64,000 bases of DNA from NCBI GenBank assembly GCA_018350325.1, contig JAEVLN010000003.1, positions 951,985-1,015,984 of the forward strand. The letters are read 5' to 3'. Below, piece by piece: positions 4,036-9,314 of this stretch. How positions within the stretch are numbered: the first letter of the stretch is position 1; each line of letters opens with the position of its first letter. The notes under the pieces were generated by a model. It was given only the letters and a program-made list of their open reading frames with translations, did not search any database and was not told the DNA's origin. Source of the stretch: Globodera rostochiensis. Lineage: Eukaryota > Nematoda > Chromadorea > Rhabditida > Heteroderidae. A program made the position numbers and the translations under genes.

Positions 4036-7000
4036 ATGCCAAAGTTCCCACTTTGGCTTCAATTTCCTTTTCTCGGTCCCCATGTCCTTCTCGCCCTTCC
4101 CGCCATTCTCCTCGTCCTTCTTCAGCTTCCCTCCCCGGTGTTCTCCACCAATTTGTACCTGAAAAGGCAATTCGGAGAAAACGAGTTTATTGTGGATGGA
4201 AAGAAATTAAATTGCTCGCTGAACGGGATCGACTTGGCCGCAATCGGTTTGGAACGGTCTTGCGAAGAGTGGCCTGACCTTGGTGGGAAACTGAATGAAA
4301 TATAAATAATAAATCATTTTGACAAATTAATTAGCAATTTAAATTTGTTCACTTTAAAATAAATCGTTTAGCACCAATTTACTGCGACGGAAAAATCATC
4401 GAGGTACTATTTACCTACGACATCATCTACACCCAATACTGTAGAGGGCGGATTTTTTGTATCAATAACATTTTCGAAAAACGGAATTTTGGTTTTGGTT
4501 TTTTCATTTTGTTAAGCCCAAAATTAAAATTGTTAGAAAGAAAGTTCAGTTCAAAAATACAGGGGCCCGGTTATACATTTCGTAGTTTGAAAGTCAGGGG
4601 AACAATCAAATTGTTTGGCACAGGCAGTGAATTACTGGGGCGATCGGATGCTGTTGTTGCGTGATTCAAAACACTTTGTGGACCGTCCCCTGCTGAAGGA
4701 AGCCAAAAAGGTCGTCGAGGAGTTCAAGACCAACTTCAATGTGACCGACTGGAAAAAGTTCGATGTGAGCGGAATGAGCCCCGCCGCAGTGGAACAATTG
4801 GGCAAATTTGTCCGACGGAATTTTGGCATGGCGGACGAAGCGTTGATCTCGTAAAATTAAATACTTAGATTTAAAAAATATCTAATTTAATTTATGCACA
4901 AATTAAGACACGCACCGGAAGATTGGGTGGAAAATCCACAGAAGTTTAAGAACATCACAGATAAGAAGTTGGCGGAATGGGCAAAACAACTGAACCAAGG
5001 GTGGAAGGCATTGAGCAAAAAAATGCCAAAAGATGTAAAAAAGGACATAATAAATTTAAAAAAAAAACAAATTTGCTTAAGATGAGCAACAACAAAGGCA
5101 ACCAAAAGCACTCGCTGATTTATGTGTCCAACCCTTTTGTGGTGCCGGGCGGCCGTTTCCGCGAATTCCACTACTGGGATGCATTTTGGATTGCGCGAGG
5201 ACTGATTGCTTCGGGTCAGTGGCTATCAGAATTAAGAGGAGCTTTGAAGCTAATTATGGATTCATTATCCTCAAAAATATTTTTAAATTTATAAAATTAG
5301 GAATGACGAAAACAGTGAAGAACATGTGCAAAAATTTTGCCGAAATGATCAACCAATTTGGCTTTGTGCCCGCCGGCGGTCGCATTTATTATAGTAAACG
5401 TTCTCAGCCACCCTTCCTCACACTGTACTTAAGAAACGATTAAAATATCTAACATTCAAATCATTCAGCATGGTCTATGATTATTTTGAGGCCACCAGAG
5501 ACACGAAATTTCTGAAGGAAATGCTTCCGACGCTTGAAAAGGTCAAAAAAAAAAAGTTAAAAAGGAAGGCGCGCCATCTAATTACCCCTCATTAACAATT
5601 TTATTTCAAATCACTAATTTTGTTTTAATTATGAAAGGAACTCGACTTTTGGCGAACAAATCGATCTGTTGAAGTCAATGTGCAAGGCCGGAAGAGGACG
5701 TATTTCCAGTACAGAACGAAAAGCAATGTTCGTCCAATTTTATGGGTTTTTTATTTGATTTTTTAGATGCCACGCCCGGAGGCATTTTGCCAAGATGTTG
5801 ATCTTGTCAAGGACATTTCTGATCCCAAGGAAAAGGCAAAAGTTTGGCAAAACATCGCATCGACCTCCGAATCGGGATGGGATTTCAGTTGTGAGTGGAC
5901 ACATCTCTAAAATCAATTATGGGGCAAAATTAAGCCCGATGGATCCGCAAAGACGACGCGGACAAAAAGAACCCGTGGAAATTGACCAATTTGATGACGA
6001 CTAAAATTGTGCCGGTGGATTTGAACGCTTTGATCTGTGGAAATCTGGACATGCTGGCCCATCTGTACCTCCAAATTGGTCAGAAATAAAAATAATTAAG
6101 CAAATGACTAAACTTTAATATAATGATCCAAAATATTCACTTAATCTAAAATGCTATAGAAATTTGATAAAAGAATTTGGAGAACATTTCCTTTCTTTAT
6201 GAATTCAATTGCCAATCAATCGCTTTTAATCGTCCAAAATTTTCTCAAGACGACAAAGCAAAATCCATGGCGTACCATGGGCAGTACCAACTGTTTCTGG
6301 AGGACTTCAAAAGCCTGTTCTACAAAAGGAGCACGGCATTTGGTACGACTACAACCTGGACAGTGGCAGACTGAACGAGGAGTACTACGGTAGTGCAGCG
6401 ATGCCGTTGTTCGCGCGTTGCTACGACACCATCGACGTGGACACGTCGGAGAGAATGTTCCAGCGGTTGGAGCTGTTTGACAAGCAATACAAAATGCTCA
6501 GCCAACCGTTTGGAATGCCCTCCAGGTGATGAATGTGCATGACTTATAAATGATTTACAAATCGAAAATGGGCCAAAGTTAAAATTTTACACAAACATTT
6601 GCAGCGCAATAACCTCTTCACAACAGTGGGACTTTCCCAATGTTTGGCCGGTAAAAAATTTATTTATGTGTCTATTATTTAAAAAGAGAAAGATCAAAGA
6701 GAGAATAATCATTTTTCCACTTGAGCCTTTGCAACACATGCTCATCGAAGGCCTACGTCGATCGAACAACAAAAGGTACTAACTTGTTTAGTTCATACAG
6801 TAAGCCATGACAGTTTTTTTCTGGCAATTTTCAATTAATTGTTTTAAAATTCAATAATTCACTGAACACATAGAATGGAGGACCAAGCAAAGGAATTGGC
6901 ACGGAAATGGGTGTCAGCCACCTACAAGCTGTACCAAAAATGTTGGCGGCAAATGTGGGAGAAAATGACTGCGGACACGGGCACACCCGGCAGGGGAGGA

Positions 7001-7274
7001 GAGTACAGCGCGCAGGTGAGGCGGTGATTGGTTAATTAAGCAAAAGCAATTGCATATTTTCGGTTTAAGAGAATTGTGTGGATTACTGTATTTTGATCAA
7101 TCTTAATCTTATTATTATTATATTTTTCGTCAGATGGGCTTTGGATGGACTAATGGTGCCGTGTTGGACCTGCTGGTGACGTATGGAGACAAACTGACGG
7201 TGGACATTGCTCCAGAAAGCAATTGTGACAACAAAATTGTGGAACAGGAACCGGACGAATACCCGAATGAAGTG
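4036..7274 (+). CDS. tre: Secreted trehalase (glycoside hydrolase family 37), 15 exons
   Basis: GH37 trehalases hydrolyse trehalose to two glucoses. Exons by splice phase: 4036-4282, 4372-4403, 4624-4850, 4908-5034, 5082-5214, 5301-5424, 5469-5541, 5638-5727, 5767-5890, 5935-6078, 6250-6525, 6605-6650, 6726-6775, 6874-7015, 7134-7274. Residues 1-37 form a long hydrophobic signal peptide. Family hallmarks are the PGGRFREFHYWD signature (about residue 233; the family's usual Tyr positions are His and Phe here), SGWDFSSRW with the catalytic Asp (about 390), QWDFPNVWPP (about 540), and GGEY with the catalytic Glu (about 608) followed by GFGWTNG. Length to the last exon is about 659 residues, normal for the family. 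Exon 11 needs one extra base at the A4 run 6324-6327 to stay in frame, so there is a frameshift or a sequencing error. No stop follows at the usual C-terminus: the last exon can splice in phase 0 into the cathepsin B exons. If unspliced, the frame ends at 7445. Confidence 0.9.
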
Positions 7275-7335
7275 GTTTGTGAAAGAAAAAAAATTACACA
7301 ATATTCGAGCCTAATTTATTATTATTATTTTTTAG

Positions 7336-9314
7336 TCCGAATACAGGGAACAACGTTTAATGGAAATGCAGAAAAAAGCGGACGAGTTGAACAGCAGAAA
7401 AAATATATCTTGGAAGGTGAAAATTTACTCTCAACAAATACATAATCCTTTTTTTAGGCAGCCGTCTACGAACCTTTTGCATTGATGACGGAAAAGGAGC
7501 TTAAACAACTCTCTGGCGCAAAATTGGAGAAGAAAATTGTTAAAAAGAAATTGCAACTGCAACTGAAGGCTTTGTCGGACGACGACAACATCGGGGATTT
7601 GCCGTTGGCGTTTGATGCGCGGGAAAAATGGCCCGAATGTGCAGCGTTCATCGGCAAAGCTGTGGACCAAGGTTTTCACAAAGGTTTCGCCGGCGATTAT
7701 CTGTTAATATAGGCAAGTGCGGGTCATGCTGGGCAGTTTCGGCTGCCAGTACACTCACGGACCGCATTTGCATTGAACGCCTTAAAAAGGGCATAAAAAC
7801 GGACCCCAACGACCCAAGGGCATATGTTTCGGCACAATACACGCTGGAATCCACGCCGGGGACAGACGGGTAATGAAAAGGCATCATTTGTGGTATAGCC
7901 GATAAATTATAAATGTTTTTTATTAAAGATGCATCGAAGGACGTGGTAATCTTGCATGGGATTTCTTTCGGGACGGAACAGTCTCTGGAACGGATTTTGA
8001 AATGTACTCTGGCTGCAAACCGTACACCGTTGAACCTTCGAAAGGGTTGTGGAAAAGTATGCTTACAGCATTGGACTTCATCAACGACGATGCTTCGTGG
8101 AAAAGAAAAGAGCCTTCTTGCAAAAAGGAATGCACAAAAAAGCATCTGCAACAGCAATATGCGGATGGAAAAATGCCTCTTGAGCCCTTTTTGCACGGTG
8201 AGTATGAGATGGAGTTGGCCGGGATAGGAAGTCGGGTTATCCAAGTTTTTGAAAAATTAAAGTCCCAAGGACCGGGATAAAATAAACCCTAAGAAAAGGA
8301 GTTTTGTTACAAAATGTATTGTGGTGGTGGTGGTGTAATGGTGAGTGGTGGAGCAACTTTACGTGGGTGGGCTTCAGATCAGGTGTGCTCGTAATTACGA
8401 GTTACGGATCACCTTTTCCAACATTTTCTGGTATAAGTTTCCGATTTTCTTAACAAAAAAATCATATAAATCTTCAAAACAAATTGAATTAAAAATTCTA
8501 AAATTTCTCGGCGGCGCCTATCGGCACCGCCGACCCCCTCCTCTCCTCTCCCCGCCTCAGAGCACATCTCTGTGTCTCGACTGTCGGATTGATGGTTGCC
8601 GACCTGAGAAAAAATTGTTGCACGAATCTTGAGAAACTCCTATTTTGCACGACAATATCCTCCTTTACAATTTTGATTAGGATATGAAGTAAATTTTGAG
8701 ACTCGAACAGTATAAAAAATTTTTGGAAAATTACGAGTTACGAATTTTTGGTTGGGGTTTTGTCCTGCACTCCACTAGCTTTAAATGTGTAATATTTTTT
8801 ATTAAATTGAAAAAATTACGTATTTTCTTACAGAAATGGAAAAAATGCCTCGTGTTATCCATACAACCCATTGGCACACTGATGGTGATCCGAATCGTAT
8901 AAGGGACATGATGCTCGAGATTATGGCAAATGGATCAATTCAAGCCTATATGAAAACGTACGATGATTTCCAAACGTTTTACACCTTTGGTATTTATGAG
9001 GTAAAAAATATCAGATTTATAACCAAATGAAAAAGTCCATTCAGAGCAGTTTCATTAGCACACCAATGGGTAATCATCTTGTTAAGATAATAGGGTGGGG
9101 AGAACAGCGAACATACCTTGGACTTGGTGGAGTTATGAAATATTGGCTGATCGTCAATTCGTGGGGTTCCGGGTTGGTAAACGCTTACAAATTGTCAAAA
9201 ATTAACGTAGCTATTTTAAGGTGGGGGATCAATGGCTTATTCAAAATACGCCGCGGGTCGAATGAATGTGATATAGAAGATGGAGGAATTTATTTTGGAA
9301 TTCCGGAAATTTGA
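7336..9314 (+). CDS. Cathepsin B-like cysteine protease (C1A), 7 exons, no own signal peptide
   Basis: Exons: 7336-7416, 7458-7671, 7713-7869, 7929-8197, 8834-9000, 9045-9172, 9221-9314, all joined by consistent phase, giving about 369 residues. Residues 1-60 match a cathepsin B propeptide (LNSRKNISWK, then ALMTEKELKQLSG). The mature part starts near LPLAFDAREKW. The active-site set is complete: Gln in VDQGKCGSCW, Cys104, His307 in GNHLVKIIGWG and Asn334 in IVNSWG. The His-His pair of the occluding loop is missing between CKPYTVEP and PSCKKEC, so loss of exopeptidase activity is likely (inference). No Met plus hydrophobic segment precedes the propeptide: only 61 nt separate it from the trehalase exon. 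It is therefore either the C-terminal half of a fusion or a downstream operon gene that lost its signal. The intron 8198-8833 is unusually long and carries a repeat. Confidence 0.88.
8315..8790. repeat. Repeat inserted in the long cathepsin B intron
   Basis: Nearly all of this intron is unlike the others in the gene (636 nt against 41-171 nt). It opens with the SINE-like text GGTGTAATGGTGAG and contains AATTACGAGTTACG twice (near 8,394 and 8,732). An insertion into an ordinary short intron would explain the length. Ends and target duplication were not resolved. Confidence 0.45.

What the first reader, a model, noticed from the sequence alone, without database searches (positions are those of the whole stretch)
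4036..9314. Apparent trehalase-cathepsin B fusion gene sharing one signal peptide
Seen: the last trehalase exon (ends 7274, phase 0) has no stop at the family's normal C-terminus. A normal GT...TTTAG intron of 61 nt leads in phase 0 into a cathepsin B propeptide exon at 7336, and all 22 exons then agree in phase to the stop at 9314 (about 1,028 residues). The protease has no signal peptide of its own and no room for one. Known: trehalases and cathepsin B are normally separate secreted proteins. Inference: one preproprotein with two enzymes, perhaps cleaved apart by the protease, or an operon pair read as one. I know of no such fusion, but cannot check.
Basis: partly seen in the sequence, partly recalled or inferred. 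Interest (0 to 1): 0.88.

Follow-up and report, generated by a model that had tools for sequence, protein, structure and literature searches.

The report
Trehalase–cathepsin B fusion in cyst nematodes
A sugar-splitting enzyme and a protein-cutting enzyme that are normally separate appear to be encoded as one secreted protein in cyst nematodes (crop pests), although the copy in this window has a break in its reading frame.

Summary
The window lies in Globodera rostochiensis (golden potato cyst nematode). The trehalase–cathepsin B gene is real and recurrent: seven more copies lie in this genome in the same order and strand. In 8 of 8 copies the 141-nt last trehalase exon has no stop and joins, through a 52–142 nt phase-0 intron, a 78–81 nt propeptide exon. 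Six of the other seven are open along their length (one with an unresolved 3' end). Two unfused trehalases of the same genome stop 2 and 5 residues after the corresponding motif. Public gene models with both domains exist for G. rostochiensis, G. pallida, Heterodera trifolii and H. schachtii; none was seen elsewhere among listed hits, and no paper describing it was found. The fused trehalases form one clade (100/100). An operon is unlikely: no stop lies between the domains, and two copies lack any Met in the propeptide exon. New: fused trehalases have lost an Asn kept in 38 of 38 unfused rows, so trehalase activity is doubtful; the protease active-site motifs are kept in 8 of 8 copies. Transcript proof is missing.

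The parts
4036..9314 (+). Whole trehalase-cathepsin B gene, 22 exons, with a frame break inside exon 11
   Evidence: spliced alignment
4036..4146 (+). Probable signal peptide (about 37 residues, ending ...SPVFS; cleavage site judged by eye)
   Evidence: translation, hydrophobicity; no signal-peptide program was available
4036..7274 (+). Trehalase (GH37) part, exons 1-15: 4036-4282, 4372-4403, 4624-4850, 4908-5034, 5082-5214, 5301-5424, 5469-5541, 5638-5727, 5767-5890, 5935-6078, 6250-6525, 6605-6650, 6726-6775, 6874-7015, 7134-7274
   Evidence: Pfam PF01204 hits
6320..6330 (+). Approximate place of the frame break in exon 11, not found in the six paralogues with a complete exon 11
7275..7335 (+). 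Junction intron, 61 nt, phase 0
7336..7416 (+). Cathepsin propeptide exon (SEYREQ...), no signal peptide of its own
7336..9314 (+). Cathepsin B-like part, exons 16-22: 7336-7416, 7458-7671, 7713-7869, 7929-8197, 8834-9000, 9045-9172, 9221-9314; Cys, His and Asn motifs present

Best explanation
This is one copy of a gene family, seen only in cyst nematodes, in which a secreted trehalase (GH37) lost its stop codon and was joined by an ordinary phase-0 intron to the propeptide exon of a cathepsin B-like gene, whose own signal-peptide exon was left behind. Intact members encode one secreted preproprotein of about 1,000 residues: signal peptide, trehalase domain, cathepsin propeptide, papain-fold protease. 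Shown by sequence: order, strand, phase, conservation, one clade on the trehalase side. Inferred: that transcripts span the junction; that the propeptide in the middle keeps the protease shut in the secretory route; that its later cutting, by the protease itself or another one as in ordinary procathepsin B, frees the protease and leaves the trehalase part with the propeptide attached. The trehalase part keeps both catalytic carboxylates in most copies but has lost a conserved Asn and a Tyr beside the active-site motifs, so its activity is probably weak or changed. The window copy has a frame break in exon 11: a damaged member, or an assembly error.
For: 8 of 8 copies in this genome share the 141-nt stop-free last trehalase exon, phase 0, intron 52-142 nt and 78-81 nt propeptide exon. 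L039, L040, L041 and L042 are open from Met to stop over 23 exons and L048 over 1,064 residues; L043 is open with an unresolved 3' end. L048 and L040 equal the public models P0001 and P0008 letter for letter. Seven other trehalase loci had no cathepsin match in the fetched DNA; unfused L047 and L046 stop 2 and 5 residues after the ..FP motif. 13 double-domain models, all from Globodera and Heterodera (12, one more, P0026). Trehalase tree: 15 fused rows one clade, 100/100. Propeptide exon pN/pS 0.38. The Heterodera models come from a pipeline that weighed RNA-seq and PacBio isoforms (PMC11817004, passages). Protease Gln, Cys, His and Asn motifs present in 8 of 8.
Against: No transcript or peptide was seen. 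The window copy has a frame break and L044 a damaged 5' half. Support for the 15 fused cathepsins as one side of a branch is only 74/85. Several public models are flawed: P0011 skips the propeptide exon, P0013 lacks the protease, P0004 and P0005 repeat segments. The last 25 trehalase codons are weakly constrained (pN/pS 0.69, a few close pairs with dN/dS above or near 1 on very few changes). L044 is annotated (P0024) as a separate protease starting in the last trehalase exon.
Confidence: 0.85

Rival explanations
1. Two genes of one operon: the trehalase message is cleaved and polyadenylated in the junction intron and the protease message is trans-spliced to a leader at 7336.
For: G. pallida uses operons and spliced leaders (PMC4054857, passages). 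In 6 of 8 copies the propeptide exon has a Met at residue 9. In 5 of 8 an in-frame stop lies within the intron.
Against: No stop before the intron in 8 of 8; in the window, L042 and L044 the unspliced reading runs past the intron. L043 and L048 have no Met in the propeptide exon. The residues before that Met ([S/T]EYR) are the same in 8 of 8. A protease made this way would lack a signal peptide.
Confidence: 0.06
2. Mixed output: splicing gives the fusion, and retention of the junction intron gives a trehalase alone with a short tail.
For: In 8 of 8 copies the unspliced reading gives a trehalase with a tail of 3 to 59 residues. H. schachtii model P0013 is a trehalase that ends after the propeptide.
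Against: Tails of distant copies share nothing beyond the first residues, so no selection on them is visible. P0013 keeps the propeptide, so it is not this product, and it may be a truncated model.
Confidence: 0.12
3. The window copy is a pseudogene, and the fusion matters only in the other copies.
For: Frame break in exon 11 not found in six paralogues. No public protein close to identical to the window's cathepsin part was listed (best 47% identity; 120 of 417 rows listed, proteins of 203-647 residues only).
Against: All seven cathepsin exons and the other trehalase exons are open, and the propeptide exon of the window against the others has dN/dS 0.28-0.44. The break may be an assembly error.
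Confidence: 0.45
4. Artefact: neighbouring genes joined by misassembly or by gene prediction.
For: Some public models are clearly flawed.
Against: Eight loci on four contigs and four species show the same junction; the junction was found here from DNA, independent of annotation.
Confidence: 0.02

Closest known systems
GH37 trehalase, animal secreted or membrane-anchored type (e.g. Meloidogyne P0152, P0153; H. schachtii P0154)
   Same: Domain over Pfam cut-off, signature motifs, catalytic Asp and Glu motifs mostly kept.
   Different: No stop at the C-terminus, no hydrophobic C-terminal tail as seen by eye in P0152-P0154, protease attached; Asn of VPNGGR and a Tyr of FREFYYWD replaced.
Unfused trehalases of cyst nematodes (P0144-P0149, P0151; L046, L047)
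   Same: Nearest relatives of the fused trehalases in the tree; end at the same ..EP..FP motif.
   Different: Stop there instead of splicing on; keep the Asn.
Cathepsin B-like cysteine protease (C1A), with solo Heterodera relatives P0025 and P0027
   Same: Peptidase_C1 over cut-off, best solved relatives are cathepsin B and procathepsin B, Gln-Cys-His-Asn motifs.
   Different: No signal peptide of its own; the loop region between ..GCKPY.. and ..MP.. does not align with human cathepsin B and shows no His-His pair; propeptide below Pfam's cut-off.
Trehalase plus trypsin model P0239 of the copepod Tigriopus californicus
   Same: A trehalase joined to a protease domain in one annotated model.
   Different: Different protease family, one model, not checked; may be a merged annotation.

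Membership tests
GH37 trehalase | Pfam Trehalase domain over its cut-off | tested here: met
   P0001, P0006, P0008, P0009 412.7-440.6 bits (cut-off 21); window exons
GH37 trehalase | Catalytic Asp and Glu (in ESGWDFSSR and GGEY) | tested here: met
   Asp in the window and 9 of 10 readable fused rows (P0001 has Asn), Glu in 12 of 12; roles from PMC7411730 passage and recall
GH37 trehalase | Asn of VPNGGR and second Tyr-motif residue of FREFYYWD | tested here: not met
   Asn 38 of 38 unfused rows, 0 of 11 readable fused rows; Tyr 37 of 38 unfused (one Phe), 0 of 10 fused. Near-universal here, but whether it is required is not tested
GH37 trehalase | Hydrolyses trehalose | not testable with these tools
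   no enzyme assay
Cathepsin B (C1A) | Papain-fold domain with Gln, Cys, His, Asn | tested here: met
   Pfam; motifs in 8 of 8 copies
Cathepsin B (C1A) | Occluding loop with His-His pair (recalled) | tested here: inconclusive
   no aligned segment in that region; no HH seen in the window sequence by eye
Cathepsin B (C1A) | Cathepsin B propeptide (PF08127) over cut-off | tested here: not met
   P0006 21.9 bits, below 32.7; no match in the window part at E <= 0.001. P0004 and P0005 carry PF08127 in the precomputed column
Gene fusion (one protein, two domains) | In-frame splice between domains, conserved in copies and species | tested here: met
   8 of 8 copies; models of four species
Gene fusion (one protein, two domains) | One transcript spans both domains | not testable with these tools
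   no reads were available
Nematode operon | Upstream gene ends in its own stop and poly(A) site before the downstream gene | tested here: not met
   no stop before the intron in 8 of 8; poly(A) signals were not scanned
Nematode operon | Spliced leader on the downstream gene | not tested
   no transcript data

The most novel reading that the evidence does not exclude
A protein of cyst nematodes in which a former trehalase is no longer mainly a trehalase: its pocket was remodelled at or after the fusion, and the domain now serves as a sugar-binding, targeting or holding module for a secreted cysteine protease that is freed when the middle propeptide is cut, the module being left with the protease's own inhibitor attached.
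Probability: 0.35. Interest if true: 0.78.

Novelty: new variant of a known kind. Interest (0 to 1): 0.62.

Why it matters
It would be a lineage-specific fusion of a carbohydrate enzyme with a protease in crop-damaging nematodes. Trehalose is tied to their egg dormancy and hatching (PMC5478601, passages), and plants respond to a nematode trehalase peptide (PMC12309661, passages). The Meloidogyne trehalases listed (P0152, P0153) are not fused, so the fusion may mark cyst nematodes. It is hidden in databases under the name 'Trehalase', which may mislead expression studies: eight trehalase genes are up in G. pallida males (PMC4054857, passages), and whether some are fusions was not checked.

Tried and rejected
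A mixed alignment with solo cathepsins (A1) looked misaligned (low identities, trehalase columns filled) and was not used; A2 leaves them out. The donor cathepsin was sought in G. rostochiensis: a C11 gene with a propeptide matches only weakly; no close solo donor was found. Frame breaks first called in the cathepsin part of L039 and L040, and two stops in L041, came from an intron missed by my aligner; with it the genes are open. In one search the breaks called in L039, L041 and L042 fall in a stretch of query P0008 (residues 73-131) that looks like retained intron. My first hand-made exon list had wrong borders (treN is misread after exon 5) and was replaced. Passages of one review gave no residue list for the conserved Asn. 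Seven library searches asked about the fusion and listed no paper that names it in title or abstract start; seven papers were searched for terms inside, the others were seen as listings only. In one search, 15 of 150 papers were listed. Three more searches served other ends. Subscription papers and preprints are not held.
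Full report
WHERE IT IS. The window is G000:C23:951985-1015984 of a 92.6-Mb assembly. The protein of a paralogue, L048, equals UniProt A0A914H7A0 (P0001) of Globodera rostochiensis letter for letter, and L040 equals P0008 of the same species. I take the genome to be that species (Heteroderinae).

THE OBSERVATION. Spliced alignment gives 22 exons, 4036-9311, with GT..AG introns. Exons 1-15 encode a GH37 trehalase with a hydrophobic N-terminus; exons 16-22 encode a cathepsin propeptide and a papain-fold protease. 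The junction intron 7275-7335 is phase 0, and no stop precedes it. Inside exon 11 the homologous reading changes frame at about 6,320-6,330. Six paralogues with a complete exon 11 (L039-L043, L048) show no such break. These calls cannot tell a damaged gene from an assembly error.

IT RECURS. Trehalase and cathepsin matches lie in the same order and strand at seven other places: four more on C23 (L039-L042), one each on C67 (L043), C17 (L044) and C38 (L048). In 8 of 8 genes the last trehalase exon is 141 nt, ends in phase 0 without a stop, and is followed after 52-142 nt by a phase-0 exon of 78-81 nt that begins [S/T]EYR. L039, L040, L041 and L042 are each open from Met to stop over 23 exons (997-999 residues, no frameshift, no stop). 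L048 is open over 1,064 residues. L043 is open, but its last exon and stop are unresolved. L044 has a damaged 5' half. So 6 of 8 look intact, 1 is degraded and 1 (the window) has a frame break.

CONTROLS. Seven other trehalase loci of this genome (L045, L046, L047, L049, L050, L051, L052) gave no cathepsin match in the 7.5-9.5 kb fetched for each (E <= 0.001). In unfused L047 and L046 the reading stops 2 and 5 residues after the ..FP motif; the fused ones splice 3 residues after the corresponding motif. A caution: the public G. rostochiensis model P0145 has a different C-terminus from the DNA reading of L047, to which it seems to belong, although G. pallida P0151 agrees with that reading (pairing by eye). 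The junction intron differs more than its neighbours between the window and the seven others: matches over longer length 0.39-0.65 for the intron, 0.72-0.75 for the last trehalase exon, 0.65-0.74 for the propeptide exon. The measure is crude, and against L048 intron and propeptide exon are nearly equal (0.64 and 0.65). The propeptide exon has mean pN 0.13 and pS 0.34 over 28 pairs; the last 25 trehalase codons are less constrained (0.25 and 0.37), with a few close pairs at or above a ratio of 1 on very few changes. Pairs are not independent.

NOT AN OPERON. G. pallida does use operons and spliced leaders (PMC4054857, passages). Here no trehalase stop precedes the intron in 8 of 8, and L043 and L048 have no Met in the propeptide exon. 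The unspliced reading stops within the intron in L039, L040, L041, L043 and L048 and runs past it in the window, L042 and L044. The intron lengths are not multiples of three in any copy. A trans-spliced protease would lack a signal peptide. Poly(A) signals and leaders were not tested.

OTHER SPECIES. A search with residues 560-1023 of the L048 protein gave 23 hits; 12 carry both PF01204 and PF00112, from G. rostochiensis (2), G. pallida (5), H. trifolii (3) and H. schachtii (2). With the trehalase part 120 of 189 hits were listed, with the window cathepsin part 120 of 417; rows with both domains were again only from these two genera, with one more G. pallida model, P0026. Rows not listed were not seen, and the search needs shared words. 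The Heterodera names fit a pipeline that weighed RNA-seq and PacBio isoforms (PMC11817004, passages; that these protein names belong to that paper is my inference). This is support, not proof. Some models are flawed: P0011 skips the propeptide exon, P0013 lacks the protease, P0004 and P0005 repeat segments.

ORIGIN. In the trehalase tree (35 rows; the window by its N-terminal piece; P0013 counted as fused) the 15 fused rows are one clade at 100/100, nested in unfused cyst-nematode trehalases; the next group is Meloidogyne plus H. schachtii P0154. In the cathepsin tree (35 rows) the 15 fused rows plus two solo Heterodera proteases form a clade (100/99); the fused rows alone get only 74/85. One fusion before the Globodera-Heterodera split is the simplest reading. 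Whether the solo Heterodera proteases are the donor line or later losses of the trehalase half is open; they have a hydrophobic N-terminus of their own (P0027; P0025 by eye).

FUNCTION. The catalytic Asp motif is kept in the window and in 9 of 10 readable fused rows of A2 (P0001/L048 has Asn; two of 38 unfused rows also differ there); the Glu is kept in 12 of 12. But the Asn of VPNGGR, present in 38 of 38 unfused rows, is Ala or Thr in 11 of 11 readable fused rows, and the first Tyr of the YYWD motif (37 Tyr and 1 Phe of 38) is Arg in 10 of 10. In this genome the Asn site is Ala in 7 copies and Ser in L043; the Tyr site is His in the window and Arg in the six intact copies. Three Heterodera rows also lose the Trp of FGWTNG. 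A paper on plant sensing of nematode trehalase says the peptide around this motif holds predicted substrate-binding residues (PMC12309661, passages). That this Asn contacts sugar in the E. coli enzyme is recalled, not checked. So the trehalase part is probably weakened or changed. The protease keeps Gln, Cys, His and Asn motifs in 8 of 8 copies. The likely working is that of a procathepsin: held shut by the propeptide, then freed by its removal, which here would also cut off the trehalase part. This is inference; no structure could be predicted.

LITERATURE. Seven searches of the open library asked about the fusion and none listed a paper naming it; most listed papers were not opened. Read as passages only: eight trehalase genes up in G. 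pallida males (PMC4054857); a trehalase up in dry G. pallida cysts (PMC5478601); a secreted H. schachtii trehalase as an effector candidate (PMC12309661). Which of these are fused copies was not determined. The gene models themselves are already public under the name 'Trehalase' or as hypothetical proteins.

Noticed in passing
L048 (G000:C38:105224-109774), protein P0001: Asn stands where the catalytic Asp of GH37 lies (ESGWNFSSR), so this copy's trehalase part is probably inactive.
   Followed up: partly
window 8198-8833: The one long intron (636 nt; the others are 39-220 nt) holds a GGT-repeat and GC-rich stretch; possibly an insert.
   Followed up: no
H. schachtii P0013: A 644-residue model with trehalase and cathepsin propeptide but no protease; if real, a trehalase carrying only the inhibitor part.
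   Followed up: no
H. trifolii P0025: A solo cathepsin-like protein with its own hydrophobic N-terminus and two propeptide-like repeats.
   Followed up: no
L044 (G000:C17): The 5' half of the gene is degraded; the public model P0024 starts in the last trehalase exon and still splices into the cathepsin part.
   Followed up: partly
Tigriopus californicus P0239: A gene model joining trehalase to a trypsin domain.
   Followed up: no
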